Shown here: positions 16,255 through 32,453 of the stretch, in pieces
Numbering within the stretch: position 1 is the stretch's first letter
Layout: every line of letters begins with the position of its first letter
From: an uncultured Lachnospiraceae bacterium
GTDB lineage: Bacteria; Bacillota; Clostridia; Lachnospirales; Lachnospiraceae
DNA: 35,637 nt
Assembly: GCA_944380065.1 (NCBI GenBank)
Contig: CALWGM010000016.1
Location: 1-35,637 of the forward strand
Reading direction: 5' to 3'
The notes under the pieces: generated by a model
Database searches by the model: none
Told to the model about the DNA's origin: nothing
Seen by the model: the letters and a program-made list of their open reading frames with translations, nothing else
Made by a program: the position numbers and the translations under genes

Positions 16255-16599
16255 CTATAAACAGCCGATCAGCTGTTCCAGCAGCTCATCACAGACCTTC
16301 AGGATTTCCTGAATCTGTTCCCGGGTGGCATGGTCATAGTGAATGCCGGCGGATACGATCACAGGAAGACCTTTTTTGTGCGCGATGGCCAGCGCCCATT
16401 TCTGGCTGAGCGTATCCTCTTTATGGCCGTCGAACGCTGTCGTATTGACCTGGCCGCCGGGCTCGACGATGGTTACCGCGCCGATGTGGCTCTTTTCCCC
16501 GCCATAGAGAAGGACATGAATCCCCTCGTCCAGCGCGGTGGCATCTGCGGCAATCTCGTATCCATATAACGTTTTTGAAACATGTCTCTGTCTGATCAT
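16255..16599 (-). CDS. lpdD: LpdD-like prenylated-flavin chaperone of a UbiD decarboxylase system
   Basis: A 114-residue protein resembling the LpdD subunit that accompanies Lactobacillus-type gallate decarboxylase (LpdC) and is now regarded as a prFMN chaperone. The pattern is a beta-rich start ending VLLYGGEKSHIGAV, a GGQVNTTAFDGHKED segment and an AGIHYDHATREQI helix start. This assignment rests on remembered family features plus context: ubiX and an LpdC-like ubiD lie within 5 kb. Its ATG overlaps the stop codon of the upstream MerR gene (ATGA), so the two are translationally coupled. What else it could be: an uncharacterised small protein of the same fold. Confidence 0.7.
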   Translation of the reverse strand: MIRQRHVSKTLYGYEIAADATALDEGIHVLLYGGEKSHIGAVTIVEPGGQVNTTAFDGHKEDTLSQKWALAIAHKKGLPVIVSAGIHYDHATREQIQEILKVCDELLEQLIGCL

Positions 16600-17486
16600 T
16601 CTGCACCTGCTTTCTGCCGGGCATCCTCACCGGGAAGGAGAACCGGCACCTGGAGCTGGCAGAAATCCGTCTGCCGCTCTTTTGTATAAAAAGTAGTATC
16701 TAAAATACATTCGTTTACTAAATCCCCGCATACAGTATAACACTGTTGGCGGATCCACTGATACAGTTTTTCAAGAAAAGACGTATCGTAGGGCATGGCG
16801 TATACGTTCATGCAAACATAAGTGCCTGCGGGGGCGACCACACACTGACAGTCAGAAAATGTGCGGGTCATATCAAAATCATCCGGCAGGCGCACATAAG
16901 CACCTGCATGCCGGATCGGGTCATTTGCCTGAATATCCGCATCAAAGAGCAATGCGCCCCATCCGTAATCAACTTCAAAGTCCAGATCATGCGCCAGGTT
17001 GCGCAGATTCATGTGGGAAATATGCATTTGTTTGCGCGTCATCTCCTGACATCCCCAGGCCTGAAACAGCAGGTTCCTTTTGGGAAACTGTTTCAGGTAG
17101 GGCTGTTCGATGTGCGACAGCTCGATTTCGGCCTGCTGGTAATAAAGGATCCGTTCTGTGATGGACCGTTTCTTTTCCTGCAGCGCAAGAATCTGCTGGT
17201 CAAGATTCTTCTGGTGAAGGATGAGCAGATCCATAGCGGTTTCGATATTGCGGTTATCCAGGTTGGTTGCGATATCCTTCAAATAGAGGCTCTTATCCTT
17301 CAAAGCACAGATTTCACGCAGAAAAGGTATCTGGTAAATGGAATAAAGGCGGTAGCCGTTTTTATTCGTATATACAGGTTTGAAAATGTTGTTTTTGTCG
17401 TAGTAAATCAGGGTCTGTCTGCTGACATGACATATTTTTGCCATTTCGCTGATGGTTAAAGTGGCATCCTCGTGATCGGTACTCAT
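16596..17486 (-). CDS. MerR-family transcriptional regulator with GyrI-like effector domain
   Basis: A 296-residue activator-type regulator. The N-terminal winged helix (about residues 10-80) reads TISEMAKICHVSRQTLIYYDKNNIFKP, the MerR helix-turn-helix and wing. A coiled dimerisation helix follows (about 85-130), then an effector-binding region similar to GyrI/BmrR-type domains (about 140-290) ending with the usual TxxxTERQTD-like strand. I start at the ATG at 17486. In-frame GTG (17498) and TTG (17516) codons exist, and the spacing to the GGAGAGG box is imperfect for all of them. It is divergent from ubiX, whose promoter carries a MerR-type operator, so it most likely activates the decarboxylase genes in response to an aromatic compound (inference). 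Confidence 0.85.
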   Translation of the reverse strand: MSTDHEDATLTISEMAKICHVSRQTLIYYDKNNIFKPVYTNKNGYRLYSIYQIPFLREICALKDKSLYLKDIATNLDNRNIETAMDLLILHQKNLDQQILALQEKKRSITERILYYQQAEIELSHIEQPYLKQFPKRNLLFQAWGCQEMTRKQMHISHMNLRNLAHDLDFEVDYGWGALLFDADIQANDPIRHAGAYVRLPDDFDMTRTFSDCQCVVAPAGTYVCMNVYAMPYDTSFLEKLYQWIRQQCYTVCGDLVNECILDTTFYTKERQTDFCQLQVPVLLPGEDARQKAGAE

Positions 17487-17543
17487 AGCTGCTCTCACTT
17501 CCTCTCCCTTCAGCAAATCTGCGCCAACCTTTATCTGAAAAAG

Positions 17544-17574
17544 ATTGTACGCTATGTTGTAAGAATACAGTCAA
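17544..17574 (-). promoter_or_regulatory. MerR-gene promoter with 19-bp spacer
   Basis: On the minus strand, TTGACT (17574-17569) and TACAAT (17549-17544) are 19 bases apart. The spacer shares the pattern GTAT-N2-TTAC with the ubiX promoter spacer and contains an imperfect inverted repeat (CTGTATT / AACATAG, five of seven positions). This suggests autoregulation by the same MerR protein. Confidence 0.6.
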
Positions 17575-17624
17575 CCGAAATCGACAAATTTCTGCCCTTA
17601 TGTTGAAAAAATAGCAGGGAAGGA

Positions 17625-17655
17625 TTGACAGTATATTTACTATACTGTTTATAAT
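17625..17655 (+). promoter_or_regulatory. ubiX promoter with MerR-type operator in a 19-bp spacer
   Basis: A perfect TTGACA (17625-17630) and a perfect TATAAT (17650-17655) are separated by 19 bases, too long for unaided sigma-A. CAGTATA (17629-17635) and TATACTG (17641-17647) form a perfect 7-bp inverted repeat with a 5-base centre in that spacer. This is the hallmark of promoters that MerR-family activators untwist. The regulator gene is divergent next door. Confidence 0.85.
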
Positions 17656-17689
17656 GAAATCCAACGAGGAGGAAAAAGGAGAGGAACAA

Positions 17690-18247
17690 ATGAAACGGTT
17701 AGTGATAGGAATGAGCGGCGCCAGCGGCGTGCCCATCGCAGTGGAAATCCTGAAAACGCTGCAGGAATGTCCGGACTGGGAAAGCTGTCTAATTGTGACG
17801 GAGGGTGCGAGACGTACCATTGAGCTGGAATCGGAATATACGGAAGAACAGATTTTGGGGCTGGCAGACCATGTTTACAATCTTCACGATATTGGGGCTT
17901 CGATTGCCAGCGGGACCTTTCAGACAGAGGGCATGGTTGTGGTTCCCTGCAGTATGAAAACGGTGGCGGGAATTCACAGCGGATATTCCGATAACCTGCT
18001 GCTGCGGGCTGCGGATGTGACCTTAAAAGAACGAAGGAAGTTAGTGTTAGTGGCGCGGGAGACGCCGCTGCACACGATCCATCTCAGGAACATGATGGAG
18101 CTTTCCCAGATGGGGGCTATTATTTTGCCGCCGATGCTGACCTTTTATAACCAGCCGGAGGGGATTTCCCAGATGGTGGAGCATATCGCGGCGAAGGTGC
18201 TGGATATTTACGGGATTGAGCACCGAAGATTCCGCAGATGGTCATAA
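17690..18247 (+). CDS. ubiX: Flavin prenyltransferase UbiX/LpdB, makes prFMN for UbiD
   Basis: Attaches a dimethylallyl unit to FMN to make prenylated FMN, the cofactor of UbiD decarboxylases. The 185 residues show GMSGASGVPIAVEIL (FMN-binding loop), VVVPCSMKTVAGIHSGYSDNL with the catalytic SGxxDNL region, and the LVLVARETPLH motif that binds prenyl phosphate. An in-frame ATG at 17654 falls inside the -10 box, so the ATG at 17690 with a GGAG box is the start. It is the only gene of its transcript before a strong convergent terminator. It is probably switched on by the divergent MerR regulator and supplies the ubiD product encoded at 19878-21347. Confidence 0.95.
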   Translation: MKRLVIGMSGASGVPIAVEILKTLQECPDWESCLIVTEGARRTIELESEYTEEQILGLADHVYNLHDIGASIASGTFQTEGMVVVPCSMKTVAGIHSGYSDNLLLRAADVTLKERRKLVLVARETPLHTIHLRNMMELSQMGAIILPPMLTFYNQPEGISQMVEHIAAKVLDIYGIEHRRFRRWS

Positions 18248-18252
18248 TTATA

Positions 18253-18311
18253 GGAAGAAAAAGGAAGGGATTCTGTCCTGACAGGATAGAGTCCCTTCCT
18301 TTTTTTCTTCC
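18253..18311. terminator. Bidirectional terminator between ubiX and the anion permease
   Basis: An 18-base arm from 18253 (GGAAGAAAAAGGAAGGGA) is almost fully complementary to 18292-18311 (TCCCTTCC followed by T-rich CTTCC). An inner stem TTCTGTCC / GGATAGAG has G-U pairs. A-rich and T-rich flanks suit termination from both sides. Confidence 0.88.
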
Positions 18312-18321
18312 ATAAATAGAA

Positions 18322-18347
18322 GCGGGAAAGCATGGATGCTTTCCCGC
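18322..18347 (-). terminator. Additional perfect hairpin after the anion permease gene
   Basis: GCGGGAAAGCAT (18322-18333) is the exact reverse complement of ATGCTTTCCCGC (18336-18347), with only two bases between. On the minus strand it is followed by TTCTATTTATGG, a weak T tract. It is probably the first terminator of the ubiD-permease transcript. Confidence 0.55.
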
Positions 18348-18393
18348 CGAAATCTGTTAAGAACCACTCTTTTTCTTCTGTACTGCGGCTGTC

Positions 18394-19833
18394 TTATACT
18401 CCGCCAAGCAGTCCAGTTGCGATTGGCATGAACAGTAGGCAGACGAAGAAGGAAATCACAACGAAAATCGTCGTATATTTTACGGTAGTCTTCATCGTCA
18501 CATGCCCCGGGCCGAAGAACAGCGGTGAAGGAACCGCCGCGGACGGCGTAACGGCAGCCATACCGGATGCGATAGAAACCATGATGGTGAATGCAGCCAT
18601 GTTTACCTGGTCAATGGACAGCAGTACGGCACCGATATTGAAGAACAGTACCATGGTAACTGTATTGGACAGGAAGTTTGTCATGATGATGGCCAGCAGG
18701 AACAGTACCGCGATGATACCGAACTGCGGAAGACCGCCAAGCACCGGCTGCAGCACGTTGCCCAGCCATACGTTGATACCAGTTGCCTCAGAAGACAGAG
18801 GTACTGCGAAGCAGGATACGGTACCTGCGAAAAGCAGGGGCGGCCAGGGAACCTGTTTCATAGCTGCGGGAACGTTCAGGACTGCCTTGCCGTTGGAACG
18901 GATCAGCGCCAGGAAAACGATACCCATAATAGCCGGGATCACGACGCCGATGCTGTTTAAGTAAGAGAAGAAGCCTGATACATTCTGCAGCAGTGAAGGA
19001 GCCAGTACGAAGAACACAACAATGATAAATACAGCTGCGGAAATCTTGCCTTCCTTGCTCAGCGGCTCCTGCTCTGCTTTTACTTTCTCTACATCGTAGT
19101 TTTTGAATGCAGAGGTGTCCGGATGCCAGATCAGTACAACCAGCATGATGACTACATACATAACTGCCGCATACGGGATACCAACCGCCAGCCACTGTGC
19201 ATAGGTGATGGTAATGCCGAATACGGACTCGCAGGAAGCCATGATGATGTTCGGCAGTGCGTGGGCGATCGGGGAGCAGATGGACAGCAGTACGTTACCG
19301 AACATTACGCCGGTGAACATACAGGTGTAGAAAGGATCTCCCTTCTTCAGTCCAAGGTGCTTGCACAGAACCTCTGTAATACCGATGTAGATAATTGCCA
19401 GGGACAGGTTGTCTACGAACATACCAATGATAACATTGGAAGCGAAGAACATGGCCATGAATGCATAAGGCCTGCCCTGGACAAATTTACGTGTTACAAA
19501 CCATATGGCGATTTTGTCAATGACTCCCGTTTCCTTCAGACATACATTCAGGATCATGTAGCAGAGAACGGTGATCACTACGAAGTGACCGAGGGAGTTT
19601 GCCCATACTTCATTGGCTGTCATGGCCTGGGTCATAACCAGAAGGCCGAGGGCCAGCAAACTGGTCCAGTGTGTGTTGGTTGTCAGCCACAGATACAGAC
19701 ACGGAATCATAATAGCGACAACACGAACACCGATATCTGTCAGCCCATTGCCCGGTTTCAGCGCAACCGCGATGACAATACCGATAATCAGGGCGATCAG
19801 ATAATGTATATATTCTTTCTTAAAAACTTTCAT
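18394..19833 (-). CDS. DASS/SLC13-type anion permease, probable aromatic acid importer
   Basis: A 479-residue polytopic membrane protein with about 11-13 hydrophobic segments. The family pattern is ion-transporter-like: a first repeat with VDNLSLAIIYIG and a second with FLSNTVTMVLFFN, matching the paired SNT signature regions of divalent anion:sodium symporters, and CSPIAHALPN and TPSAAVPSPLFF re-entrant segments. DASS proteins import dicarboxylates, sulfate and other carboxylates with sodium. It lies 44 bases downstream of ubiD on the same strand, so the two are almost certainly one operon. The likely cargo is the aromatic carboxylate decarboxylated by UbiD (inference from context, not from residues). 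A product exporter or exchanger is an alternative. Confidence 0.85.
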   Translation of the reverse strand: MKVFKKEYIHYLIALIIGIVIAVALKPGNGLTDIGVRVVAIMIPCLYLWLTTNTHWTSLLALGLLVMTQAMTANEVWANSLGHFVVITVLCYMILNVCLKETGVIDKIAIWFVTRKFVQGRPYAFMAMFFASNVIIGMFVDNLSLAIIYIGITEVLCKHLGLKKGDPFYTCMFTGVMFGNVLLSICSPIAHALPNIIMASCESVFGITITYAQWLAVGIPYAAVMYVVIMLVVLIWHPDTSAFKNYDVEKVKAEQEPLSKEGKISAAVFIIVVFFVLAPSLLQNVSGFFSYLNSIGVVIPAIMGIVFLALIRSNGKAVLNVPAAMKQVPWPPLLFAGTVSCFAVPLSSEATGINVWLGNVLQPVLGGLPQFGIIAVLFLLAIIMTNFLSNTVTMVLFFNIGAVLLSIDQVNMAAFTIMVSIASGMAAVTPSAAVPSPLFFGPGHVTMKTTVKYTTIFVVISFFVCLLFMPIATGLLGGV

Positions 19834-19877: not shown

Positions 19878-21347
19878 TTAGAACATATCCGGCAGCCAGT
19901 GCTTCGGATCTACATCCAGGAACTGTGATCTCTCAAAGTGTTTCTTCTGGGAGAACGGCATCGTGCAGTCAAAGATAGTCTTGCAGGAAATACCGTTGTC
20001 ACGGATCATCGGATTGTAGGACGGCTCCTGTGTATGATCCAGCGGATGGCATCTTACGCCGGGGATCATCACCGTATCAATGTCTCCCTGATAACGGGTG
20101 TTCAGAGCCCATAAAACATCGTTGCTGTCGAACGGATCCACATCTTCATCCACCAGAATCACATGCTTCAGCTCGCTGAATGCGGAGAAGGCAAGCAGCG
20201 CAGCCTGGCGCTGACGTCCCTCATCGCTGGGGATGCTCTTCTTGAACTGGATGATAGCCATGTACTTTCCGCCTCCTGACGGATGAGCGTATACGTTCAT
20301 CAGACGTCCGGGCATGGCAGTCTCCACCATGTTGATGATACTTGCCTCTGTGGGAAGTCCGGCCATATGCACATGCTCCTCGGAAGGACCGATGGTCGTC
20401 TGCATGATCGGATTTACCCGGTGTGTAACGGCTTTTACTTTGATGATCGGAACCATCGGAGCAGGACCTGTCTGTCCGGGGAACTCCGGCATGGCCTTTC
20501 CTGTTCCTGTGGAGCGATCCTCCGGAACACGCTCGTGAGGCAGGAGCTCGCCTTCGATGACATACTCGGCGTTGGCAATGGCTTTCTCGCCGATGGTGAT
20601 GCAGTTGCACAGCTCAACCGGTTTCTGGCGGATCGCGCCTGCGCAGCCCAGCTCATTGTATCCCAGCGGTGTTGTCGGCGGCTCGAATCCGGAAGCAAGA
20701 TAAACAGCCGGATCCAGTCCGATGCTGATGGAGATCGGCATGGGCTTATTCAGCTTTTCATACTTGTCGTAGAAAACGCCTAAATGTCTTGCGCCCGGGG
20801 TAATCCACATGGAAAGTTCATCCTTGCTCTGCAGGCAGAATCTGTGAATCGTCACATCAGAGATGCCTGTCTCCGGATCGCTGGCGTAAGCCAGACCCAT
20901 CGTGATGTACGGACCGGCGTCTTCCGGTGTGTTGGTGGGTGCCGGAACCAGATCGCGGATATCAAAGCCTTCGTCTGTTGCGTAGTGTACGACTTCCTGA
21001 CAGGGGGCTTTCTCTCCGGTAAAGTCGATCGGATCAATGGGATGCTGCACCGCATCGCGCAGGTAAAAGCCCAGCTTCTCCGGCTCTGTGTCCAGGAGCG
21101 CGGCAACTCTCTTTCTGCTTGCCAGCATACCGATGATTACTCTTGCGCCAGGATGTCCCTTTACATTATTGAACATCATGGCAGGGCCGATTTTGGTAGG
21201 TCTCATTACCGTTCCGCCAGCGCCCACATGACGGTATACGCCGGAAAGTTCCGCTTTCGGATCAACTTCCACGTCGGTCTCAACATACTCGCCCGGGATT
21301 GACTGAATCAATTCAATGGCAGAACGTAAATCGTCTACTTTGTTCAT
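19878..21347 (-). CDS. lpdC: UbiD-family gallate/protocatechuate-type decarboxylase (LpdC-like)
   Basis: A 489-residue prFMN-dependent decarboxylase. It matches Lactobacillus LpdC (gallate decarboxylase) along its length as I remember that protein: the start ETDVEVDPKAELSGVYR, GAGGTVMRPT, GPAMMFNNVKG, APTNTPEDAGPYIT, FEPPTTPLGYNELG, GKAMPEFPG, IGPSEEHVHMAGLPTEASI and AFSAFSELKHVILVDEDVD. UbiD active-site parts are the Arg in DVTIHR and the glutamates in YVIEGELLPHER. The reaction would be non-oxidative removal of CO2 from gallate or protocatechuate to pyrogallol or catechol. It needs prFMN from ubiX and probably the LpdD-like chaperone. It is the first gene of the minus-strand operon and has a GGAGGG box. 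Substrate is inferred from similarity, not proven. Confidence 0.92.
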   Translation of the reverse strand: MNKVDDLRSAIELIQSIPGEYVETDVEVDPKAELSGVYRHVGAGGTVMRPTKIGPAMMFNNVKGHPGARVIIGMLASRKRVAALLDTEPEKLGFYLRDAVQHPIDPIDFTGEKAPCQEVVHYATDEGFDIRDLVPAPTNTPEDAGPYITMGLAYASDPETGISDVTIHRFCLQSKDELSMWITPGARHLGVFYDKYEKLNKPMPISISIGLDPAVYLASGFEPPTTPLGYNELGCAGAIRQKPVELCNCITIGEKAIANAEYVIEGELLPHERVPEDRSTGTGKAMPEFPGQTGPAPMVPIIKVKAVTHRVNPIMQTTIGPSEEHVHMAGLPTEASIINMVETAMPGRLMNVYAHPSGGGKYMAIIQFKKSIPSDEGRQRQAALLAFSAFSELKHVILVDEDVDPFDSNDVLWALNTRYQGDIDTVMIPGVRCHPLDHTQEPSYNPMIRDNGISCKTIFDCTMPFSQKKHFERSQFLDVDPKHWLPDMF

Positions 21348-21385: not shown

Positions 21386-21399
21386 CTATACCTGTATAG
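21386..21399 (-). promoter_or_regulatory. Palindrome at the presumed ubiD promoter
   Basis: CTATAC and GTATAG flank two bases in a perfect 6-bp inverted repeat about 40-50 bases upstream of ubiD. On the minus strand, weak boxes TTGCTA and TATAGA are 17 bases apart, and the palindrome overlaps the -10. It could bind a regulator, but its half-sites differ in arrangement from the ubiX operator. Confidence 0.4.
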
Positions 21400-21574: not shown

Positions 21575-21721
21575 TTACTGTGAACGGGACGTACAGTAAG
21601 AAATTGTGAAAAAATAAAGAAAAAATATCGGAAAATACCTTGACTATTGTATGGTGTGAGCATATAATCATCATTACGAGATACATATGGTATACCAAAA
21701 TAATTCAGCGATGTATACCAT
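21575..21721 (+). promoter_or_regulatory. Promoter and operator-like repeats of the molybdoenzyme operon
   Basis: TTGACT (21640-21645) and TATAAT (21663-21668) have a 17-base spacer, a strong sigma-A promoter. Upstream, TTACTGT (21575-21581) and ACAGTAA (21593-21599) form a perfect inverted repeat with an 11-base spacer. Just after the start site, ATGGTATAC (21687-21695) and GTATACCAT (21713-21721) form a perfect 9-bp repeat, and TGGTATACCA (21688-21697) is itself a palindrome. These look like activator and repressor sites. The rest of the 21348-21746 gap has only the ubiD control region. Confidence 0.7.
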
Positions 21722-21746
21722 GCAGAAAATGCTGTGGAGGGATAAG

Positions 21747-24425
21747 ATGGGAGAAAAAGTAGAGATTTCCAGCATGGACTTCCTGGCGGCCACCAGTGTG
21801 AGGGGGCTGCGGTTTGCTACCGGAAATACCCGGATGTTCCGGAAAGCAAAACAGGAACGGAAAGAGAAGGAAGATGAGATCCGCAAGGTAAAGACCTGCT
21901 GTCGGGCCTGTATCGCCAACTGCGGCGTGATCGCCACTGTGAAGAACGGGCGTGTGGTGAAGTTGGAGGGCAATCCGGAGGACCGCATGAGCAAGGGGCG
22001 GATGTGCGCCAAGGGGCTGTCCGGAATCCAGGCGCTGTATCACCCGAACCGGAACAAATATCCGATGATGCGAGTGGGGAAGCGGGGAGCCAATAAGTGG
22101 CGCCGGATTTCCTGGGAGAAGGCGATCGATATTATCGCCCGCAAATTAGTGGAGACAAAACAGAAGTACGGAGCCGAAACGGTATTTTGTTCTACCGGAG
22201 GCGGCGGGAATCCGGAGATCTGGAGTATTGCCCGGTTCTGCAATATCTTCGGGACGCCGAACTGGTTTGAGCCGGGATGCGCCCAGTGCTATCTGCCCAG
22301 AGTGCTGGCATATACCATGATGTACGGAGGCGTCGATCCCAGTATCGCGGATTCCAATTCCCTGGAACTCTATGATACGGAAGACACACCCATCCGGACC
22401 CTGGTTCTCTGGGGGACAGACCCGTCCTATTCCTGCCCGGCCAGCGGCGGAGGCGCCGTGGTGGATCTGCGGGCAAAGGGAGTGCATACGGTTGTCATCG
22501 ATCCCCGTCTGACGCCGGATGCGGCGAAGGCGGATGTATGGCTGCCGATCCGGCCGGGTACGGACGTGGCTCTGATGCTTGCCTGGATCCGCTTTATTAT
22601 GGAAGAAAAACTGTACGATGAGGAGTTTGTCATGAAATGGACGAACCTTCCTTATCTGGTGGATACAGAGACGAAGATGTTCTGGCGGGATCAGGTCAGT
22701 GAAGATCCGGATATCCCGGATATCTTCATGGTCTGGGATGAGAAAAGCAATCAGCCGAAACCGATGGAATATCCCTGGAATGATGAACTGCAGCCTGCGC
22801 TGCAGGGTACATACACCTATGAGGGAAAGACTTACAAAACAGGATTCCAGCTTTTGTGGGAGCAGGTAGAGCAGTACACGCTGGAATATGCCGGCGGGAT
22901 CTGTGAGCTGGAGCCGGAGCGTATTGAGAAAGCGATCCGGATGTATGCACAGCAGACGCCCAGCGGTATCGCCATCGGCGTAAGTACGGATCAGACGCCG
23001 AACTCTGTACAGGCGGCCATGAGTACCGCCACCCTGGATCTTCTGATGGGAAATGTGGAGCGTCCCGGCGCGCTGCTGCAGCGCTTCCAGACCAGCGGGG
23101 TCTTTGATATGCCGAACTATCCGGTTCCCATTGCGGCAGACAAGCTGCCGGACGAGCAGCTGAAAAAGCGTCTGGGCGGTATTGAGCATAAGGGGCTGCA
23201 TATCTGGTACGCAGGCCATATCACCAGCATCATGGATGCTGTACTGACCGGGGAACCATACAAGCCGAGAGTCTGGATCGACCGTTCCGGAAACAAGATG
23301 GCGGCTGTGGCGGACAGCCAGAAGGTAAAGCGGGTGATTGATGAACTGGATTTCATTGTCCATATGTATATGTATCCCACATCGTTCTCCGCTTATGCGG
23401 ATATCCTGCTTCCGACAGAGGAATGGCTGGAAACCGATATGATCGTGGAAACCTGCAACACGCTCTGCGCCAGACAGCAGGTGACGCATCTCTGGGAGAC
23501 CATGGATGAGACGCTGATCTGGTCAAAAATCGCGAAACGCTGCGGTGAATTGGGGGATGAAGACTGTGCGAAAGCGTTTGATGCGGAGTACATGGGAAAA
23601 GATCTGCCTTACTGGGATAAAGTGACGGATCTGTGGGATCATTTCCTGGGAAGGATCGGCCTGGATTTTGAGACATTGAAAGAGAACACTCCCTATACCT
23701 ATATGCCGAAGGAAGAGTGGAAGGAATACTATGTGTATAAGAAGACAGATCCGAAGACGAATCTGCCGCAGGGATTCCCCACGCCTTCTAAAAAATGTGA
23801 GGTTTACCTGGAGAGCATGATTACCCTGGGACGTACCGGCAGGCCTTTTGCAAAGTGTGATCTGCCTCCGGCCTCGAAGGATTATGAACCCCTCCCCTAT
23901 TATCTGGAGCCGGCTGAAAGCCCCAGGGATACGGAAGGGCTGGCAAAAGAGTTCCCGCTGGTTATGACGAATGGCCGGGTGCCGTTTTTCCATCATAATA
24001 CGCTGCGCAACATTCCCTGGCTGCGGGAGATTTATCCGGTTCCGGAGCTGTGGATGTTCCCGGACGATGCCGAAAAGTACGGCCTGGAAGATGGCAGCTG
24101 GGCCTGGGTAGAGTCAAAGCGCGGAAAGATCCGGGCGATTGTATCGGTTACCCAGGGGATCAAGCCGGGGGTTGTCTATATGGAGCGGTTCTGGAATCCG
24201 GAGACGCTGGAGACAAAGACCCACGGCTGGACGGAGATGAATGTGAATATGCTGACGAAGGCGGACGCGCCGTTTAACGATGTGGTCGGGACCTATACGC
24301 TGCGCGGCTTCCTGGTCAAGGTATATCCGGCAGAAGGGGCGCCGGAGGGAATCTGGCAGTCACCCCGGGATTTCACCCGGTGGCTGGCGAAACCCAGCGA
24401 CAGTACAGAGGAGGTGTCCTTATGA
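21747..24425 (+). CDS. Cytoplasmic molybdopterin oxidoreductase (DMSO reductase superfamily), catechol dehydroxylase/acetylene hydratase-like
   Basis: An 892-residue catalytic subunit holding a bis-pterin Mo or W cofactor. A [4Fe-4S] site is formed by Cys52, Cys55, Cys59 and Cys87 (CRACIANC, then CAKG). A GTPNWFEPGCAQCYLPR segment follows; by comparison with acetylene hydratase, Cys181 is the likely metal ligand. VLWGTDPSYS and VVIDPRLTPDAAKADVWLPIRPGTD are the pterin-binding signatures, and a C-terminal domain starts near PLVMTNGRVPF. No twin-arginine signal is present, so it is cytoplasmic. An ATG at 21687 lies at the transcription start without a ribosome binding site; the ATG at 21747 has GGAGGG. 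The substrate is inferred to be a polyhydroxylated aromatic (for example pyrogallol) from the neighbouring UbiD; other substrates remain possible. Confidence 0.88.
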   Translation: MGEKVEISSMDFLAATSVRGLRFATGNTRMFRKAKQERKEKEDEIRKVKTCCRACIANCGVIATVKNGRVVKLEGNPEDRMSKGRMCAKGLSGIQALYHPNRNKYPMMRVGKRGANKWRRISWEKAIDIIARKLVETKQKYGAETVFCSTGGGGNPEIWSIARFCNIFGTPNWFEPGCAQCYLPRVLAYTMMYGGVDPSIADSNSLELYDTEDTPIRTLVLWGTDPSYSCPASGGGAVVDLRAKGVHTVVIDPRLTPDAAKADVWLPIRPGTDVALMLAWIRFIMEEKLYDEEFVMKWTNLPYLVDTETKMFWRDQVSEDPDIPDIFMVWDEKSNQPKPMEYPWNDELQPALQGTYTYEGKTYKTGFQLLWEQVEQYTLEYAGGICELEPERIEKAIRMYAQQTPSGIAIGVSTDQTPNSVQAAMSTATLDLLMGNVERPGALLQRFQTSGVFDMPNYPVPIAADKLPDEQLKKRLGGIEHKGLHIWYAGHITSIMDAVLTGEPYKPRVWIDRSGNKMAAVADSQKVKRVIDELDFIVHMYMYPTSFSAYADILLPTEEWLETDMIVETCNTLCARQQVTHLWETMDETLIWSKIAKRCGELGDEDCAKAFDAEYMGKDLPYWDKVTDLWDHFLGRIGLDFETLKENTPYTYMPKEEWKEYYVYKKTDPKTNLPQGFPTPSKKCEVYLESMITLGRTGRPFAKCDLPPASKDYEPLPYYLEPAESPRDTEGLAKEFPLVMTNGRVPFFHHNTLRNIPWLREIYPVPELWMFPDDAEKYGLEDGSWAWVESKRGKIRAIVSVTQGIKPGVVYMERFWNPETLETKTHGWTEMNVNMLTKADAPFNDVVGTYTLRGFLVKVYPAEGAPEGIWQSPRDFTRWLAKPSDSTEEVSL

Positions 24426-25054
24426 AACAGTATGCATTTGTAGTAGAACTGGACCGCTGCATCGGCTGTAAGGGATGTCAGGTGGCCTGCAAAATGGAAA
24501 ATGGAACAACACTGGGCTCTGACCGGACCAAGGTACGTGCAGTGGGACCCTTCGGGACATATCCGGACCTGCAGATGTACTTTCTGCCTACCATGTGCCA
24601 GCAGTGTGAAAATCCGGTGTGTGTGCGTGTCTGTCCTTCCGGAGCTGTTTACAAAAGCAAGGAAGACGGCGTGGTCCGCATAGAGACCAGGAAATGTATT
24701 GGCTGCCACAGCTGCAATAAGGAATGCCCTTATCATGCCAACACATTCAGCGAGACCCTGCGGGCGATGGATAAATGTACGATCTGCGCACAGCTGCGGG
24801 AGATCGGCGAGGAGCCGGCCTGTGTGAAGAACTGTTCCGGGAAAGCGCTCCATTACGGGGATATCAATGATCCGGACAGCGAGGTTTCCAGGCTGCTGCG
24901 GGAAGCGGGGGAAGAACATGTATACCGCCTGAGAGATTTCGGAAACGGGCCTTCCACCCGTTATATTCTGAAGAATGCACAATGGCAGGATATTCTTCCG
25001 CCGGAACTGGATGAGGTTTCTTTTGTACGGGGAGGCAAATATTATGAGCATTAA
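24422..25054 (+). CDS. Four-cluster ferredoxin-type electron-transfer subunit
   Basis: A 210-residue DmsB/PhsB-type iron-sulfur protein that carries electrons to or from the molybdoenzyme. Sixteen cysteines fall in the classic four groups: Cys13/16/19/23, Cys59/62/67/71, Cys92/95/98/102 and Cys119/122/134/138, enough for four [4Fe-4S] clusters. Its ATG overlaps the stop codon of the catalytic subunit gene (ATGA), with a GGAGG box inside the upstream gene, so production is coupled to that subunit. No membrane anchor subunit follows, so electrons must come from a soluble donor, presumably the next two gene products. Confidence 0.93.
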   Translation: MKQYAFVVELDRCIGCKGCQVACKMENGTTLGSDRTKVRAVGPFGTYPDLQMYFLPTMCQQCENPVCVRVCPSGAVYKSKEDGVVRIETRKCIGCHSCNKECPYHANTFSETLRAMDKCTICAQLREIGEEPACVKNCSGKALHYGDINDPDSEVSRLLREAGEEHVYRLRDFGNGPSTRYILKNAQWQDILPPELDEVSFVRGGKYYEH

Positions 25055-26795
25055 TAAAAAAGCGGATTTTCAGAGACTGATGAAAAACCGGCGTGATCTG
25101 TATCAGTTTTTTGCCAGATTTTTCGCGTCGGAGATTGACGAAGAGTTTTATGAGCAGCTGAAACACATTGAGTTCCCGGCAGACCGGGCGGAGAATGCGC
25201 TGACAGAATTCCAGGATGCCTTGATCCGTCTGAATGAATATTTTGAATATGATGCCGGGGAGACGCTGGAGGATCTGGCGGCGGATTATGCAAAAACCTT
25301 CCTGGGGGCGGGGGTCGCACAGGGAGATGCCGCATTCCCCTATGAATCGGTGTATACCAGCCCGAAGCATATTATGATGCAGGACGCCTGGAGTGAGGTC
25401 TGTGAGATTTACGAGGCAAAAGGCATCGAGAGAAACGATGATGCGGGGGACTGGCTGGAGGATCATATTTCCATGGAGATGGAATATATGGCTTATCTGT
25501 GTGACGAGATTAGTGAGTATACAGAGACTCTGGCGGGACTGGAGGAACAGAAATCCTTCCTGAACCGGCATCTGCTGAACTGGGCGCCGGAATTCTGCCT
25601 GAAGATCAAGGATTGTGCGGATACAGAGTTCTACCGCATGGTAGGGCAGCTGACCACCGGCTTTCTGCAGCTGGACAGCTTTATCCTGGACCGGATGATC
25701 GTGGACCGGAAGTCCGGGATGGCCTATTCCAGAAGCTGTACCGTCAGCCGGGAGATGATGAACCGGATCCTGCGGAAGCTGCAGAATGAGTACCGTATTT
25801 TTGCACCGGTGCACCGGCCGGACCGGGGAAGGTGGGAGACAGACGGACTGATCCGTTACCAGGAGATCAGTTCCCTCGAAGAGATTGTCACAGACCGGCA
25901 GTCTGATTTCTCGCCCAAGGAAGTGATTTTCCCGGTTGCGGAACCGATTTTCAAATTTGATGAGGACAATTGCCGGGAGTGTGTCTCGACGGACCCGAAG
26001 GGAATCATTATTTTTGCAAGACCCTGTGATATCAACGGCATGAAGCGTCTGGACAATATGTTCCTGGCCAACGGAGGCGTGGTGGATCCGTATTACAGCC
26101 GGGTGCGCGGCCGGGTGAAGTTTTTTATGATGGAATGTGAGGAGAGCTGGGATAACTGCTTCTGTGTATCCATGAAGAGCAACATCGCGGATTATTACAG
26201 CGTGGCCTGCAGGATTGGGAAAGACGAGATTCTGCTGAAGATCAAAGACGGAGAATTCGCAGACTATTTTGACTGGGCCAGGGACTGTGATTATGAACCC
26301 CGTTTCATTCTGGAGAATGAGAAAAAAGTCAGGGTGCCGGAAATTGCGGACAGCAATATGCTCAGGCAGATTGCGGATCTTGACATGTGGAAAGAGTATG
26401 ACAACAAGTGCATTTCCTGCGGTGGGTGCAATACGGTCTGCCCGACCTGCAGCTGTTTTGAAACGGTAGATTACCTGAACCAGGAAAACAGCCGCAAGGG
26501 CGAGCGCAGAAGAATCTGGTCTTCCTGCATGATCCCTGATTTTTCCAGGACAGCGGGCGGGAATATCGCGCGGAAGTTCCCCAGACAGATGATGCGTTAT
26601 AAAACACTGCACAAAGTATACGACTATAATAAGCGGTTTGGCGGAAATGAGCATATGTGCGTTGGCTGCGGACGATGCCTGCAGCGGTGCCCCGAGGAGA
26701 TTTCTTTTGTGGATACGATCAACCGGCTGAGCGAAGAGACGGACAGGCTGAAAGGCCGGGATGCTGAAAGAACAGGAGGAAGCTATGGAAAATAA
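25044..26795 (+). CDS. TorD-type chaperone fused to an AsrA-like iron-sulfur subunit
   Basis: A 583-residue two-part protein. Residues about 10-215 are helical and resemble TorD/DmsD chaperones, which hold molybdoenzymes during cofactor insertion (LYQFFARFFASEIDEEFYEQL, then DYAKTFLG, AFPYESVYTSP and DHISMEMEYMAYL). Residues about 235-583 match AsrA, the electron-transfer subunit of anaerobic sulfite reductase: IFARPCDINGMKRLDNMFL, ECEESWDNCFCVSM, then two ferredoxin motifs (Cys456/459/462/466 and Cys539/542/545/549) and CMIPDFS. The fusion is continuous in one frame with no stop. The start overlaps the previous gene by 11 bases and has GGAGG. The likely role is to mature the catalytic subunit and relay electrons from the AsrB-like protein. 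No siroheme sulfite reductase gene follows. Confidence 0.9.
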   Translation: MSINKKADFQRLMKNRRDLYQFFARFFASEIDEEFYEQLKHIEFPADRAENALTEFQDALIRLNEYFEYDAGETLEDLAADYAKTFLGAGVAQGDAAFPYESVYTSPKHIMMQDAWSEVCEIYEAKGIERNDDAGDWLEDHISMEMEYMAYLCDEISEYTETLAGLEEQKSFLNRHLLNWAPEFCLKIKDCADTEFYRMVGQLTTGFLQLDSFILDRMIVDRKSGMAYSRSCTVSREMMNRILRKLQNEYRIFAPVHRPDRGRWETDGLIRYQEISSLEEIVTDRQSDFSPKEVIFPVAEPIFKFDEDNCRECVSTDPKGIIIFARPCDINGMKRLDNMFLANGGVVDPYYSRVRGRVKFFMMECEESWDNCFCVSMKSNIADYYSVACRIGKDEILLKIKDGEFADYFDWARDCDYEPRFILENEKKVRVPEIADSNMLRQIADLDMWKEYDNKCISCGGCNTVCPTCSCFETVDYLNQENSRKGERRRIWSSCMIPDFSRTAGGNIARKFPRQMMRYKTLHKVYDYNKRFGGNEHMCVGCGRCLQRCPEEISFVDTINRLSEETDRLKGRDAERTGGSYGK

Positions 26796-27579
26796 TAATG
26801 TATTAATCCCCAAACCCCACAGGATCCTGAGTATGCTGCGGCATACGTCGACGGAATGTACCTTCCGTGTGTCCTGTGAGAACGATCCCGGCTACGGACA
26901 GTTTTTCATGCTGTCCCTGCCCAAAGTCGGAGAGGCCCCGATTTCTGCCAGCGGAAAAGGAGCCGGATATGTGGAGTTTACCATCCGCAACGTGGGGCTT
27001 CTGACACAGGCGATTTTCGACCTGGAACCGGGCAATTCCATTTTCCTGCGGGGACCCTTTGGAAATTCTTTCCCGGTCAAGCAGTTTGAAAACAAAGATC
27101 TGCTGGTGATCTGCGGCGGTACCGGCATGGCTCCGGTTATGACCATGATCAATCATTTTTATGACCATCCGGAGGTCTGCAGGTCGCTGTATCTGATTTC
27201 CGGCTTTAAGAATTATGACGCTGTGCTGTTTCGGGATGAAGCGAAGAAGTTTGCGCAGAGATTTCATGTGATTACAACGCTGGACAATGAAGAACGGGAA
27301 GGATTTGCAACCGGCATGGTGACTGCCCATATCGGGAAGGTGCCGATTCGGGAGTTCGACGATTATAATATTGTCATTGTGGGACCGCCGGTGATGATGC
27401 ATTTCGCCGCCCTCGAATGTCTGAAAAACGGGGCGTCCGAGGATAAGATCTGGGTATCTTTTGAGCGGAAAATGTGCTGCGGAATCGGAAAATGCGGGCA
27501 CTGCAGGATCAATGATACGTACGTATGCCTGGATGGGCCGGTGTTCAATTATTCCAAAGCGAAAGATATGTTTGACTGA
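26785..27579 (+). CDS. asrB: AsrB-like FAD/NAD(P)H-dependent ferredoxin reductase subunit
   Basis: A 264-residue flavoprotein of the ferredoxin-NADP reductase family, closest in motif content to AsrB of anaerobic sulfite reductase. It has the flavin segment GEAPISAS (49-56), the nucleotide-binding CGGTGMAPV (110-118), VGPPVMM, and a C-terminal [2Fe-2S]-type cysteine set CGIGKCGHC (Cys232, 237, 240) with Cys248, followed by GPVF. It would oxidise NAD(P)H and pass electrons to the AsrA-like part of the fusion protein. Its ATG overlaps the end of that gene by 11 bases and has an AGGAGG box. It is the last gene before a strong terminator, so the four genes form one tightly coupled operon. Confidence 0.9.
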   Translation: MENNNVLIPKPHRILSMLRHTSTECTFRVSCENDPGYGQFFMLSLPKVGEAPISASGKGAGYVEFTIRNVGLLTQAIFDLEPGNSIFLRGPFGNSFPVKQFENKDLLVICGGTGMAPVMTMINHFYDHPEVCRSLYLISGFKNYDAVLFRDEAKKFAQRFHVITTLDNEEREGFATGMVTAHIGKVPIREFDDYNIVIVGPPVMMHFAALECLKNGASEDKIWVSFERKMCCGIGKCGHCRINDTYVCLDGPVFNYSKAKDMFD

Positions 27580-27646: not shown

Positions 27647-27664
27647 GTGAAAGAAAGAAAAAAG

Positions 27665-28012
27665 TTAATATAATATATCCCAGTCGGAGGGGAAGCGTAC
27701 CGCTCCCAGGAGCATGCCGTCGCTGATGCGGCTGTGCCCGTCGGGAATGGTATATCCCATACTGTTTAAGTCTTCCTCAATATAGCGGATCAGCTTATGG
27801 TTGGTGGGAATGGCCCGGTAAGTGCCGGGGGCCAGTACGCCGTGCTTGTCATGCTCCCCGTAAAAAGCAATGTTTTCTGTCTCGGGATCATGCCAGATCC
27901 GGTAATAGCCGATGACTTCGTCGTTGTACTTGACTTCAAAACGCATGATCCGGAAGACGCTGTATTTTTCGATTTCTTCCCAGTGAATTTTTACAGGTTT
28001 TAATTCTGCCAT
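27665..28012 (-). CDS. Uncharacterised 115-residue protein of the molybdopterin operon
   Basis: I do not recognise this protein. It starts MAELKPVKIHWEEI, is soluble-looking with no signal or membrane segment, and contains a YYRIWHDPETENIAFYGEHD stretch rich in aromatic and acidic residues and a C-terminal MLLGAVRFPSDWDILY. No cysteine ligand motif or P-loop is visible. It follows the MoeA/MogA-like gene at 28034 by 21 bases on the same strand and is the last of three genes (mogA, the cysteine-tail gene and this one). Its position suggests a role linked to molybdenum cofactor supply or the Mo enzyme, but this is context only. The ATG is preceded by an AAAGGAA-type box. Confidence 0.6.
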   Translation of the reverse strand: MAELKPVKIHWEEIEKYSVFRIMRFEVKYNDEVIGYYRIWHDPETENIAFYGEHDKHGVLAPGTYRAIPTNHKLIRYIEEDLNSMGYTIPDGHSRISDGMLLGAVRFPSDWDILY

Positions 28013-28033: not shown

Positions 28034-29065
28034 TTATTTGCCGAACCCGCAGTTCGGGAAGGTACAGACTTTGCAGCTCAGGCACAGACCGCCTTCGCCC
28101 AGCCCGGCGATATCTTCCCGGGTGATCTCGTCATCTGCCATGACCCGGGGAAGAACCAGATCAAAGATCGTGCGTTTTGCATACATGACGCAGCCGGGAA
28201 GCCCGAGGATGGGAACGCATCTGCCGTCCGCTGTCTGATAATAGGAGATCATCATCATGGCTCCCGGAAGGACGGGCGCGCCATAAGTGATCACCCTGGC
28301 GCCGGTGGCCGCGATGGCGCCGGGCGTGCGGTCATCCGGATCGACGCTCATGCCGCCGGTGCAGACAATCAGGTCGGCGCCCTGTGCAAGGAACGCAAGG
28401 ATCGCGTCTGTGATATGTTCTTTTTCATCGTCCACATACGTCTGTCCCAGGACTTCGGTGGGATATTCTGCCAGTTTTCCGCGGATCACAGGGCCGAAGG
28501 TGTCCTCGATGCGCCCTTTGAATACCTCGCTTCCGGTGGTGACTATGCCGACTTTTTTCTGGCGGAAGGGGAGAATCCGGAACAGGGGAGCGTCCCCGCC
28601 GGCCTTTCTGGCAGCTTCCATCTTTTCCTTTTCAATGATCAGGGGAATGATCCTTGTCCCGGCCAGTTTGTCGCCCTTTTTTACAGGGAAATCGCCGTGG
28701 ATAGAGGCAATCATCATTTCGCCCAGGCTGTTCACGGCCCGCAGATGCTGGCGGTCGATTTTCAGAAGGCCGTCCATATCGGCAATCAGCTCGATTTTTC
28801 CTTCTTTGACGTCTGTGCCGTGGATATGTTCCCCGGCGCAGATGTCATACAAAACAGCGGCCGCGTCGTTTTCGTGGAGCATATTTTCGTCTTTTTCCCA
28901 GACGTAGAGGTGCTCTTTCCCCACAGAAAGCAGAACCGGAATGTCCTCTTCGCGGACAACGTGCCCCTTGCGGAAAACAGCGTCTTTGGTGACTCCGCGG
29001 ATAATTTGTGTAATATCATGGCAAAGTACATGCCCTACGGCATCTTCTGTAGCAATCAGTTTCAT
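28034..29065 (-). CDS. Molybdopterin-binding MoeA/MogA-like protein with cysteine-rich tail
   Basis: A 343-residue protein. The N-terminal 140 residues contain IATEDAVGHVLCHDIT, typical of MoeA-like N-terminal regions. Residues about 165-300 form a MoCF-biosynthesis (MogA-like) domain with KVGIVTTGSEVFKGRI, VCTGGMSVDPDDRTP and LPGCVMYA motifs, used in inserting molybdate into molybdopterin. The C-terminus ends CLSCKVCTFPNCGFGK, a four-cysteine motif that could bind metal. This architecture occurs in Clostridia beside Mo or selenium enzymes. It is second in the minus-strand cofactor operon, 38 bases after mogA. Exact function is unproven; it is probably an auxiliary metal-insertion factor. Confidence 0.8.
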   Translation of the reverse strand: MKLIATEDAVGHVLCHDITQIIRGVTKDAVFRKGHVVREEDIPVLLSVGKEHLYVWEKDENMLHENDAAAVLYDICAGEHIHGTDVKEGKIELIADMDGLLKIDRQHLRAVNSLGEMMIASIHGDFPVKKGDKLAGTRIIPLIIEKEKMEAARKAGGDAPLFRILPFRQKKVGIVTTGSEVFKGRIEDTFGPVIRGKLAEYPTEVLGQTYVDDEKEHITDAILAFLAQGADLIVCTGGMSVDPDDRTPGAIAATGARVITYGAPVLPGAMMMISYYQTADGRCVPILGLPGCVMYAKRTIFDLVLPRVMADDEITREDIAGLGEGGLCLSCKVCTFPNCGFGK

Positions 29066-31002: not shown

Positions 31003-31027
31003 AGGATACAGGAAGAGAGAGGTACAT

Positions 31028-32011
31028 ATGAGAGACAGTTTTGATCGGGAAATTGATTATATGAGAATATCGGTAACAGACCGCTGCAATCTTCGCTGCC
31101 GGTACTGTATGCCGGAGGGCGGGATCAGGACGATTCCCATGCCGGAACTGCTGACGTATGAGGAGATTGCCCGTGTCTGTCAGATCGGCGTGGGACTGGG
31201 AATCCGCAAGATCCGGCTGACCGGAGGGGAACCGCTGGTCAGGACTGATCTGCCGAAGCTGATAGCGATGATCAGCAGGATTCCCGGGATTGAGCGGGTG
31301 AGTATGACAACGAACGGGATACTCCTGCCGAAGTATTTGCCGGAACTGACAGCCGCCGGTCTTCACGGCGTGAATATCAGCCTGGACACGCTGAATCCGG
31401 ATATGTTTTGCCGGATTACCAGAGTGGACGCGCTGCAGAAGGTGCTGGACAGTATCCGCGCGGCGCTGGATGCCGGACTGAAGGTGAAGGTGAATACGGT
31501 GCTGCTGCCCAGGGACTTTTTCGATGACGCGGTGGTGGACTGGAGAGAAATGCTGGCGCTGGCGAAGGAATTGCCCGTGGATCTGCGCTTTATCGAACTG
31601 ATGCCCATCGGCGAAGGAAAGCAGTATTACCATGTGACCGGCGAGGAGGTGCTCTCCTCCCTGAGAGAGATGTATCCTGCCCTGCAGGATGACCATACCG
31701 TACATGGCAGCGGCCCGGCGGTCTATTATCGGATTCCGGGGTTTGCCGGCAGCGTGGGGCTGATCCTGGCAATGCATGGAAAGTTTTGCCATGAATGCAA
31801 CCGGATCCGTCTCAGCGCAACAGGGAAGATCAAACCCTGTCTGTGTTATGCGGAAACCTTTAATCTGCAGCCGGTGATCCGCGGCGGCGGCAGTGACGCG
31901 CAGATCCGGGAGATCATGAAAAAAGCGATTTATGCAAAACCGGCGGCGCATTGTTTTGAGACATTGCAGGACGTTTCGGAAGAACACCGGATGGTTTCGA
32001 TCGGAGGTTAG
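31028..32011 (+). CDS. moaA: GTP 3',8-cyclase MoaA
   Basis: A radical SAM enzyme that starts molybdenum cofactor synthesis by cyclising GTP. The 327 residues include the radical SAM triad Cys20-Cys24-Cys27 (CNLRCRYC) and SAM-binding LTGGEPLVR. A second C-terminal cluster site CHECNRIRLSATGKIKPC and the functional double glycine at the very C-terminus (VSIGG) are also present, so the protein appears intact. GAGAGG precedes the ATG. The next step, MoaC, and the MoaD/MoaE/MobA functions are not in this window and must be elsewhere. Confidence 0.96.
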   Translation: MRDSFDREIDYMRISVTDRCNLRCRYCMPEGGIRTIPMPELLTYEEIARVCQIGVGLGIRKIRLTGGEPLVRTDLPKLIAMISRIPGIERVSMTTNGILLPKYLPELTAAGLHGVNISLDTLNPDMFCRITRVDALQKVLDSIRAALDAGLKVKVNTVLLPRDFFDDAVVDWREMLALAKELPVDLRFIELMPIGEGKQYYHVTGEEVLSSLREMYPALQDDHTVHGSGPAVYYRIPGFAGSVGLILAMHGKFCHECNRIRLSATGKIKPCLCYAETFNLQPVIRGGGSDAQIREIMKKAIYAKPAAHCFETLQDVSEEHRMVSIGG

Positions 32012-32015
32012 GCAG

Positions 32016-32453
32016 ATGGGAGAAGTAAAAGGGATTTGCATCAGCAAGATCCGGGGGATCCAGAAGCATGAGGTTGCGGAGGCAACGCTGAAGGAGAACT
32101 GGGGGATTGAGGGAGATGCCCATGCGGGCGACTGGCAGAGACAGATCAGCCTGCTGGATTATGCGGAAATCGAACATGTGCGTTCCAACGGAACCGATGC
32201 GGACTTTGGGACTTTTGGGGAAAACCTGATTGTGGAGGGATACGATCTGAAGCAGCTGCCCCTGGGAACCAGGCTGCGGATCGGAGAGGACGCTGTGCTG
32301 GAGCTGACCCAGATCGGGAAACAATGCCACAGGACCTGTGGACTGGATAAAGCGGTGGGGGAATGTGTCATGCCCCGGGAGGGGATTTTTACCAGGGTGC
32401 TGCATGGCGGCGTGATCCATGTGGGAGATCCGGTTGCCCTTGAAAAGGAATAG
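32016..32453 (+). CDS. MOSC-domain protein
   Basis: A 145-residue stand-alone MOSC domain, the fold found at the C-terminus of Mo cofactor sulfurases. The pattern is GIEGDAHAGDWQRQISLLD, FGTFGENLIVEG, LPLGTRLRIG, and a cysteine-containing QIGKQCHRTCGLDKAVGEC ending GIFTRVLHGGVIHVGD. Family members carry sulfur or bind Mo cofactor; the conserved cysteine in QCH is present. It begins four bases after the moaA stop with a GGAGG box inside the end of moaA. The probable role is in maturing or delivering the cofactor, possibly to the molybdoenzyme at 21747 (inference). Confidence 0.9.
   Translation: MGEVKGICISKIRGIQKHEVAEATLKENWGIEGDAHAGDWQRQISLLDYAEIEHVRSNGTDADFGTFGENLIVEGYDLKQLPLGTRLRIGEDAVLELTQIGKQCHRTCGLDKAVGECVMPREGIFTRVLHGGVIHVGDPVALEKE

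What the first reader, a model, noticed from the sequence alone, without database searches (positions are those of the whole stretch)
16255..32453. Candidate pathway: aromatic-acid uptake, prFMN decarboxylation and a NAD(P)H-linked molybdoenzyme in one region
The sequence shows an LpdC-like UbiD decarboxylase, UbiX, an LpdD-like protein, a MerR regulator and an anion permease, flush against a four-gene Mo/W enzyme operon and six cofactor-related genes. Known LpdBCD systems convert gallate to pyrogallol, and known Mo enzymes of the catechol dehydroxylase type remove ring hydroxyls. Their adjacency suggests that the decarboxylated phenol is the next substrate (inference). I do not know a characterised system with this exact combination.
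Basis: partly seen in the sequence, partly recalled or inferred. Interest (0 to 1): 0.85.

Follow-up and report, generated by a model that had tools for sequence, protein, structure and literature searches.

The report
Gallate-breakdown locus with extra molybdenum reductase
This stretch of a gut bacterium's genome holds most of the genes for breaking down gallic acid from plant tannins, and beside them a separate, uncharacterised molybdenum enzyme that probably strips hydroxyl groups from related phenols.

Summary
The genes are as described: a gallate/protocatechuate-type UbiD decarboxylase with UbiX, an LpdD-like protein, a MerR regulator and an anion permease, next to a four-gene Mo operon and Mo-cofactor genes. 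The main inference, that the decarboxylated phenol is this Mo enzyme's substrate, is not what the comparison favours. The two halves adjoin in only one other genome found (G399, 93-95% identical). A pyrogallol-phloroglucinol transhydroxylase (TH) follows the window's last gene: in G399 it starts 266 bases past LysR, and the window's end maps about 1.24 kb from the own contig that carries most of TH. SSF and LysR at the window's right end are TH-locus genes, also in Eubacterium oxidoreducens, a known gallate degrader. So the locus reads gallate to pyrogallol to phloroglucinol. The Mo operon is another enzyme: cytoplasmic, fed by AsrAB-type NAD(P)H subunits, nearest to acetylene hydratase, the known neighbour of catechol dehydroxylases. 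Among 149 Lachnospiraceae genomes with MoaA it tracks TH (8 of its 12 carriers against 2 of 137), and its link to UbiD vanishes once TH is accounted for. Best guess: a fermentative, NAD(P)H-driven phenol dehydroxylase. Substrate unproven; new variant of a known kind.

The parts
16255..16599 (-). LpdD-like small subunit (PAC_bac family)
   Evidence: PF21758 98.6 bits; the same family sits beside UbiX and MerR in an uncultured Flavonifractor (L253)
16596..17516 (-). MerR-type regulator of the decarboxylase module
   Evidence: PF00376/PF13411; MerR-UbiX pairing also in E. oxidoreducens and G021 (L086, L085)
17628..17648 (.). Dyad ACAGTATATTTACTATACTGT between TTGACA and TATAAT hexamers 19 bases apart: MerR-type promoter of ubiX (hexamers read by eye)
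   Evidence: kept in G399; exact pattern not found in 14 other loci scanned
17654..18247 (+). UbiX/LpdB-type flavin prenyltransferase (makes prFMN); likely start at 17690, as the frame's first ATG overlaps the -10 hexamer
   Evidence: PF02441; TIGR00421 and NF004685 over cut-off; NF041206 VdcB 258 bits, under its cut-off of 290; flavin prenyltransferases in the PDB
18394..19833 (-). DASS/CitMHS anion permease, probable aromatic-acid importer
   Evidence: PF03600, PF00939; adjoins UbiD in E. oxidoreducens and G021
19878..21347 (-). UbiD/LpdC/AroY-type prFMN decarboxylase
   Evidence: PF01977/PF20695/PF20696; AroY 5ny5 669 bits; NF041204 VdcC 455 bits, under its cut-off of 650
21386..21399 (.). 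Perfect palindrome CTATACCTGTATAG upstream of ubiD, only copy in the window
   Evidence: kept in G399; not found in 14 other loci scanned
21687..24425 (+). MoA: bis-MGD molybdoenzyme catalytic subunit (likely start at 21747)
   Evidence: PF00384, PF01568, PF04879; best solved match acetylene hydratase 2e7z by sequence and by model
24422..25054 (+). Fe-S electron-transfer subunit (DmsB/TtrB-like)
   Evidence: PF13247 and other Fer4 domains; TtrB/NrfC/DmsB models under cut-off
25044..26795 (+). TorD-type chaperone fused to AsrA-type Fe-S subunit
   Evidence: PF02613 and PF17179; TIGR02910 387 bits, over cut-off; fused in 27 of 80 named loci
26785..27579 (+). AsrB-type FAD/NAD(P)H reductase subunit
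   Evidence: PF00175, PF10418; TIGR02911 324 bits, over cut-off; sulfhydrogenase gamma in the PDB
27665..28012 (-). Conserved hypothetical of the TH locus
   Evidence: no Pfam match; relatives near the TH genes in E. oxidoreducens (L255) and G230 (L261)
28034..29065 (-). MoeA2-like molybdopterin-binding protein
   Evidence: PF00994
29103..29597 (-). MogA/MoaB-like Mo-cofactor protein
   Evidence: PF00994, 114 bits
29782..31002 (+). MoeA, molybdenum insertase
   Evidence: PF03453/PF00994/PF03454
31028..32011 (+). MoaA, GTP 3',8-cyclase
   Evidence: TIGR02666 347 bits, over cut-off
32013..32453 (+). MOSC-domain protein
   Evidence: PF03473
32847..34424 (-). SSF sodium:solute symporter of the TH locus
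   Evidence: PF00474; homologues within a few kb of TH1 in L247, L253, L254, L255, L257, L258, L260, L261
34701..35636 (+). LysR regulator of the TH locus; TH1 follows it in G399
   Evidence: PF00126/PF03466; L247; contig-end mapping

Best explanation
The window is most of a tannin/gallate catabolic locus plus a neighbouring, distinct molybdoenzyme operon. Supported by homology and linkage: gallate-type acids enter through the DASS permease, UbiX makes prFMN, and the UbiD protein with its LpdD-like partner decarboxylates them (gallate to pyrogallol); TH, encoded immediately right of the window, carries pyrogallol to phloroglucinol, with Mo cofactor from MoeA2, MogA, MoeA and MoaA. Inferred: the MoA operon is a cytoplasmic complex in which AsrB takes electrons from NAD(P)H, AsrA and the Fe-S subunit pass them on, and the Cys-ligated Mo site of MoA reductively removes a hydroxyl group from a polyhydroxylated phenol met in the same diet (a pyrogallol-, catechol- or tetrahydroxybenzene-type ring), serving as an electron sink or clearing a side product. 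It descends from, or shares an ancestor with, exported respiratory forms that keep a twin-arginine signal and a NrfD-type membrane anchor. The dehydroxylase role and the substrate are not shown.
Against: No substrate or activity data. MoA occurs without TH in 31 of 50 and without UbiD in 35 of 50 further MoA genomes at E 1e-60. TH plus UbiD occur without MoA in G230 (98% complete), G229 (97%, TH only 45% identical) and G402 (91%), so MoA is not needed for the pathway. UbiD and TH lie on different contigs in 8 of the 14 genomes counted above. E. oxidoreducens and E. ramulus are recalled to leave 3,4-dihydroxyphenylacetate from quercetin intact, which speaks against that catechol as substrate. 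No characterised catechol dehydroxylase sequence could be obtained for a direct tree. The dyads lie at ubiX and ubiD, not at the MoA promoter hexamers, and were not found in 14 other loci, so co-regulation is not indicated. Associations are partly phylogenetic clustering.
Confidence: 0.6

Rival explanations
1. One reading: UbiD makes pyrogallol or catechol and the adjacent MoA complex dehydroxylates it with NAD(P)H, giving resorcinol or phenol.
For: Divergent genes, frames 339 bases apart in the window, also divergent neighbours in G399; the right enzyme branch; NAD(P)H subunits.
Against: Adjacency in one lineage only; TH takes pyrogallol and lies next door; the UbiD association disappears without TH; the MoA promoter lacks the dyads seen at ubiX and ubiD.
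Confidence: 0.2
2. MoA serves TH itself: it tunes the pool of the co-substrate 1,2,3,5-tetrahydroxybenzene (removing surplus or wrongly hydroxylated rings), which TH needs to move hydroxyls.
For: MoA of 80% identity or more is found with TH of 75% or more in 13 of 16 genomes, against 2 of 60 with more distant MoA; genus split 7 of 8 against 0 of 12; TH needs tetrahydroxybenzene as co-substrate (PMC13039779, passages read).
Against: TH+UbiD genomes without MoA exist (G230, G229, G402); making tetrahydroxybenzene is an oxidation, whereas the operon looks like a reductase; whether the TH genomes form one clade of the genus was not tested.
Confidence: 0.15
3. MoA reduces an unrelated acceptor (thiosulfate, polysulfide, selenium or arsenic species), and its place beside the gallate genes is chance in one lineage.
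For: The best-scoring NCBIfam model is PhsA, 293 bits, though under its cut-off of 694; AsrA/AsrB-type subunits are known from sulfite and sulfur reduction (model names); the operon sits in many contexts, among them bcd-etf genes (Pfam) and, by eye, biotin genes.
Against: Nearest solved relative is acetylene hydratase; several cultured carriers are phenol users; strong tracking of TH; a protein cluster whose tested member is an OYE-type reductase lies near MoA in 5 of 80 loci, and one whose tested member is URO-D-type in 5 of 80.
Confidence: 0.2
4. The decarboxylase works mainly on protocatechuate (to catechol), not gallate.
For: Best solved match is a protocatechuate decarboxylase.
Against: Recurrent linkage to TH points to pyrogallol; the E. 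oxidoreducens orthologue lies in a gallate degrader.
Confidence: 0.15

Closest known systems
LpdBCD/VdcBCD gallate and hydroxyarylic acid decarboxylase, AroY
   Same: UbiD, UbiX and LpdD-like subunits; 669 bits to AroY over nearly the full length
   Different: Genes not in one B-C-D operon; scores under the curated VdcB and VdcC cut-offs; tied to a TH locus
Gallate-pyrogallol-phloroglucinol pathway of Eubacterium oxidoreducens and Pelobacter acidigallici
   Same: Decarboxylase module, TH, SSF and LysR homologues (compared with E. oxidoreducens)
   Different: Here one region also holds the MoA operon; in E. oxidoreducens MoA, UbiD and TH lie on different contigs
Catechol dehydroxylases of gut Coriobacteriia (Dadh, Hcdh, Cadh, Cldh)
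   Same: bis-MGD enzyme, nearest to acetylene hydratase, with a Fe-S partner
   Different: Reported ones have a three-part membrane-linked or a two-part form (PMC11574389, PMC7028382, passages read); here cytoplasmic with AsrAB-type NAD(P)H subunits and a TorD-AsrA fusion, in Bacillota
Acetylene hydratase (2e7z)
   Same: Best match by sequence and fold; Cys at the metal-ligand position
   Different: The Asp of its CxxCDINC motif (Asp13, recalled) is Ile in MoA; MoA has redox partners
Pyrogallol-phloroglucinol transhydroxylase (4v4c)
   Same: Mo enzyme acting on the same ring chemistry, encoded beside this locus
   Different: Ser ligand (PMC10100899 table, passage read) against Cys in MoA; not among MoA's PDB matches at E 0.001
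Anaerobic sulfite reductase AsrABC
   Same: AsrA and AsrB electron-transfer subunits
   Different: The catalytic subunit is a molybdoenzyme; no AsrC gene follows

Membership tests
Gallate/hydroxyarylic decarboxylase LpdBCD | Catalytic UbiD-family subunit near AroY/LpdC | tested here: met
Gallate/hydroxyarylic decarboxylase LpdBCD | Over the curated VdcC and VdcB exception cut-offs | tested here: not met
   455 of 650 and 258 of 290 bits
Gallate/hydroxyarylic decarboxylase LpdBCD | UbiX-type B subunit and small D subunit nearby | tested here: met
   that PF21758 is the LpdD family is recalled
Gallate/hydroxyarylic decarboxylase LpdBCD | Acts on gallate | not testable with these tools
   needs an assay
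Catechol dehydroxylase (bis-MGD) | Closer to acetylene hydratase than to other solved bis-MGD enzymes | tested here: met
   only solved proteins were compared, and by fold the lead over the next is under 1 Z unit
Catechol dehydroxylase (bis-MGD) | Groups with Dadh/Hcdh/Cldh in a tree | not tested
   no reference sequences could be obtained
Catechol dehydroxylase (bis-MGD) | Partner set of reported enzymes (membrane-linked three-part or two-part) | tested here: not met
   AsrA/AsrB partners
Catechol dehydroxylase (bis-MGD) | Removes a hydroxyl from a catechol | not testable with these tools
   needs an assay
Pyrogallol transhydroxylase | Close match to 4v4c | tested here: not met
   4v4c absent from MoA sequence matches at E 0.001; true TH genes are elsewhere
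Acetylene hydratase | Asp directly after the second Cys of the Fe-S motif (CxxCDINC) | tested here: not met
   MoA has CRACIANC
Anaerobic sulfite reductase AsrABC | AsrA and AsrB over curated cut-offs | tested here: met
   387 against 323 and 324 against 289 bits
Anaerobic sulfite reductase AsrABC | AsrC catalytic subunit in the operon | tested here: not met
   the next genes are a hypothetical and Mo-cofactor genes on the other strand; the rest of the genome was not searched for AsrC

The most novel reading that the evidence does not exclude
The AsrAB-linked MoA complex is a dedicated, previously unassigned step of anaerobic gallate breakdown: an NAD(P)H-driven soluble phenol dehydroxylase that controls the tetrahydroxybenzene co-substrate of pyrogallol transhydroxylase, derived from an exported respiratory dehydroxylase that lost its twin-arginine signal and swapped its membrane anchor for sulfite-reductase electron subunits.
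Probability: 0.15. Interest if true: 0.8.

Novelty: new variant of a known kind. Interest (0 to 1): 0.55.

Why it matters
Gallate from tannins is a common gut and rumen phenol, and its breakdown consumes reducing power and yields short-chain acids. The locus gives gene-level markers for that route in an E. ramulus relative, and singles out a Bacillota Mo reductase near the catechol-dehydroxylase branch that appears to use NAD(P)H rather than a membrane chain. In the passages I read, the characterised dehydroxylases are mostly from Coriobacteriia. It is testable in cultured strains (E. oxidoreducens, E. ramulus).

Tried and rejected
MoA as TH: rejected (and the Cys ligand). MoA as acetylene hydratase: the motif Asp is missing. 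Conserved UbiD-MoA gene pair: rejected. Etf/acyl-CoA dehydrogenase neighbours in L060 first looked like caffeyl-CoA reduction; with thiolase and hydroxyacyl-CoA dehydrogenase they read as butyrate genes, and in L067/L082 such genes go with an FAD-linked oxidase, in L082 also a lactate-racemase-like gene. One operator shared by all promoters: not found; one 25-base dyad near MoA lies in a part that did not align to G399. Literature: the 1988 and 1993 E. oxidoreducens papers are not held. Eight full-text searches showed, in listings of at most 20 papers each, no description of an AsrAB-linked dehydroxylase; one search matched 15,541 papers, so this is weak. The VIA-align list does not show TH; that absence proves nothing. 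Rows dropped: 9 of 80 MoA rows before the tree (six cut, three near-duplicates); 30 of the 80 named loci were not put to (most already in the G sample, some cut or redundant). Only one member each of the neighbour clusters d1-d6 was put to Pfam.
Full report
What is there. Two details change the picture: the third Mo-operon gene is a fusion of a TorD-type chaperone and an AsrA-type Fe-S subunit, and the SSF transporter and LysR right of the given range matter.

Decarboxylase half. The UbiD protein matches AroY-type protocatechuate decarboxylases over nearly its whole length (669 bits). UbiX, an LpdD-like protein, MerR and a DASS permease accompany it. In E. oxidoreducens (L086) UbiX, MerR, UbiD and DASS stand together as well. 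A MerR-type promoter (dyad in a 19-base spacer) precedes ubiX and a 14-base palindrome precedes ubiD; each occurs once in the window and both are kept in G399, but neither exact pattern was found in 14 other loci. Gallate as substrate is inferred, not shown; the curated VdcB and VdcC cut-offs are not reached.

The missing neighbour. The own genome has two transhydroxylase-type genes on other contigs, C92 and C39. The E. oxidoreducens homologue matches pyrogallol hydroxytransferase 4v4c at 1628 bits and the own C39 copy at 1143 bits. In the near relative G399 the gene order of the window continues past LysR into the TH large and small subunits (L247). The window's last bases map to G399:C1 position 16306, and the end of own contig C92, which lies inside TH, maps to 15063, so about 1.24 kb separates the two own contigs on G399. 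Homologues of the window's SSF and LysR lie near TH in G021, E. oxidoreducens, G309, G230 and P. paucivorans (L254, L255, L258, L261, L257), and of SSF alone in L253 and L260. In L253 UbiD stands directly upstream of TH. Of 14 other genomes seen with UbiD and TH of 75% identity or more, the two share a contig in 6 (G399, G402, G404, G409, G021, G453) and lie on different contigs in 8 (G411, G405, G103, G309, G050, G230, G454, G455). So the recurrent linkage is decarboxylase plus TH, i.e. gallate to pyrogallol to phloroglucinol, as the literature has it (PMC10470551 and PMC13039779, passages read).

The MoA operon. It is a separate enzyme. Among solved proteins it is nearest to acetylene hydratase by sequence and, narrowly, by predicted fold (mean pLDDT 71.6, pTM 0.80). 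An invariant Cys aligns with the hydratase's metal-ligand Cys, while the hydratase's motif Asp is Ile (residue roles recalled). TH uses a Ser ligand (PMC10100899 table passage). AsrA and AsrB pass their curated cut-offs, which gives NAD(P)H as donor by inference. MoA in the window has no twin-arginine motif. Of 80 named MoA loci, 58 have AsrA, 54 AsrB, 27 the TorD-AsrA fusion; 7 have a twin-arginine motif, six of these with an anchor-like gene whose one tested member is DmsC/NrfD-type, and none of the 7 has AsrA (many contigs are cut, so absences are uncertain). In the tree the twin-arginine forms (Sporomusa, soil Bacillota, Acidobacteriota) group together against the fused forms (quick method, 71 of 80 rows). 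The N-termini of many soluble forms still show a DFLxAT-like stretch where exported ones read RRxFLKAT, which I read as a decayed signal.

Distribution. In one draw of 397 Lachnospiraceae genomes MoA is in 12, UbiD in 43, TH in 10, MoaA in 149. All MoA and TH genomes have MoaA. Within the 149: MoA with TH 8 of 12 against 2 of 137 (p=4e-9); MoA with UbiD 8 of 12 against 22 of 137 (p=3e-4); in the TH-negative rest, MoA with UbiD 1 of 4 against 20 of 135 (p=0.48). Three of the eight TH matches are distant (G343 54%, G219 53%, G154 38% identity). In the genus (20 genomes) MoA is in 16, UbiD in 15 counting the own genome, TH in 8; MoA of any kind is not associated with TH or UbiD there (p=0.62 and 0.53), but MoA of 83% identity or more is in 7 of 8 TH genomes and 0 of 12 others, and the 65-68% form is in 0 of 8 and 9 of 12. 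Over 76 MoA genomes examined, TH of 75% identity or more accompanies MoA of 80% or more in 13 of 16 and more distant MoA in 2 of 60. These tests ignore shared ancestry, and the identity cuts were chosen after seeing the data. Against coupling: of 50 further named MoA genomes 31 lack TH and 35 lack UbiD, and TH plus UbiD occur without MoA in G230, G229 and G402.

Reading. MoA most likely dehydroxylates a polyhydroxylated phenol with NAD(P)H. Exact substrate unknown. Catechol dehydroxylases are known (PMC7028382 section 11 and passages read; PMC12771579 abstract and passages; PMC11887054, PMC11585353 and PMC11574389 passages; [quoted passage not shown]

Noticed in passing
L251 (G000:C39) 8343-11140: The own genome's second TH gene reads as two pieces in different frames (781 and 107 aa); real lesion or assembly error not settled.
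   Followed up: no
L248 (G399:C1) 9092-16379: Between DapB and DapA, G399 carries a stretch that looks by eye like a xanthine-oxidase-type Mo enzyme set (435, 174, 345 and 305 aa), a LysR fragment and a further 715-aa MopB protein 41% identical to G399's MoA over 256 aa.
   Followed up: partly
L140, L146, L147: MoA operons in Lactobacillaceae (Agrilactobacillus, Loigolactobacillus); UbiD in two of these three genomes, no TH.
   Followed up: partly
L112: MoA gene in an Epulopiscium single-cell genome, without recognisable AsrA downstream.
   Followed up: no
window 10390-13236: Two AAA-ATPase_like genes (one with a PD-(D/E)XK domain) lie between the LuxC-like gene and dapB; other genes stand next to dapB in G399 (L248).
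   Followed up: no
L127 9896-12646: MoA read as two open frames (206 and 697 aa), possibly a broken copy.
   Followed up: no
L160, L170: A second MoA-like and FeSB-like pair follows the operon in two Parasporobacterium MAGs; not examined further.
   Followed up: no
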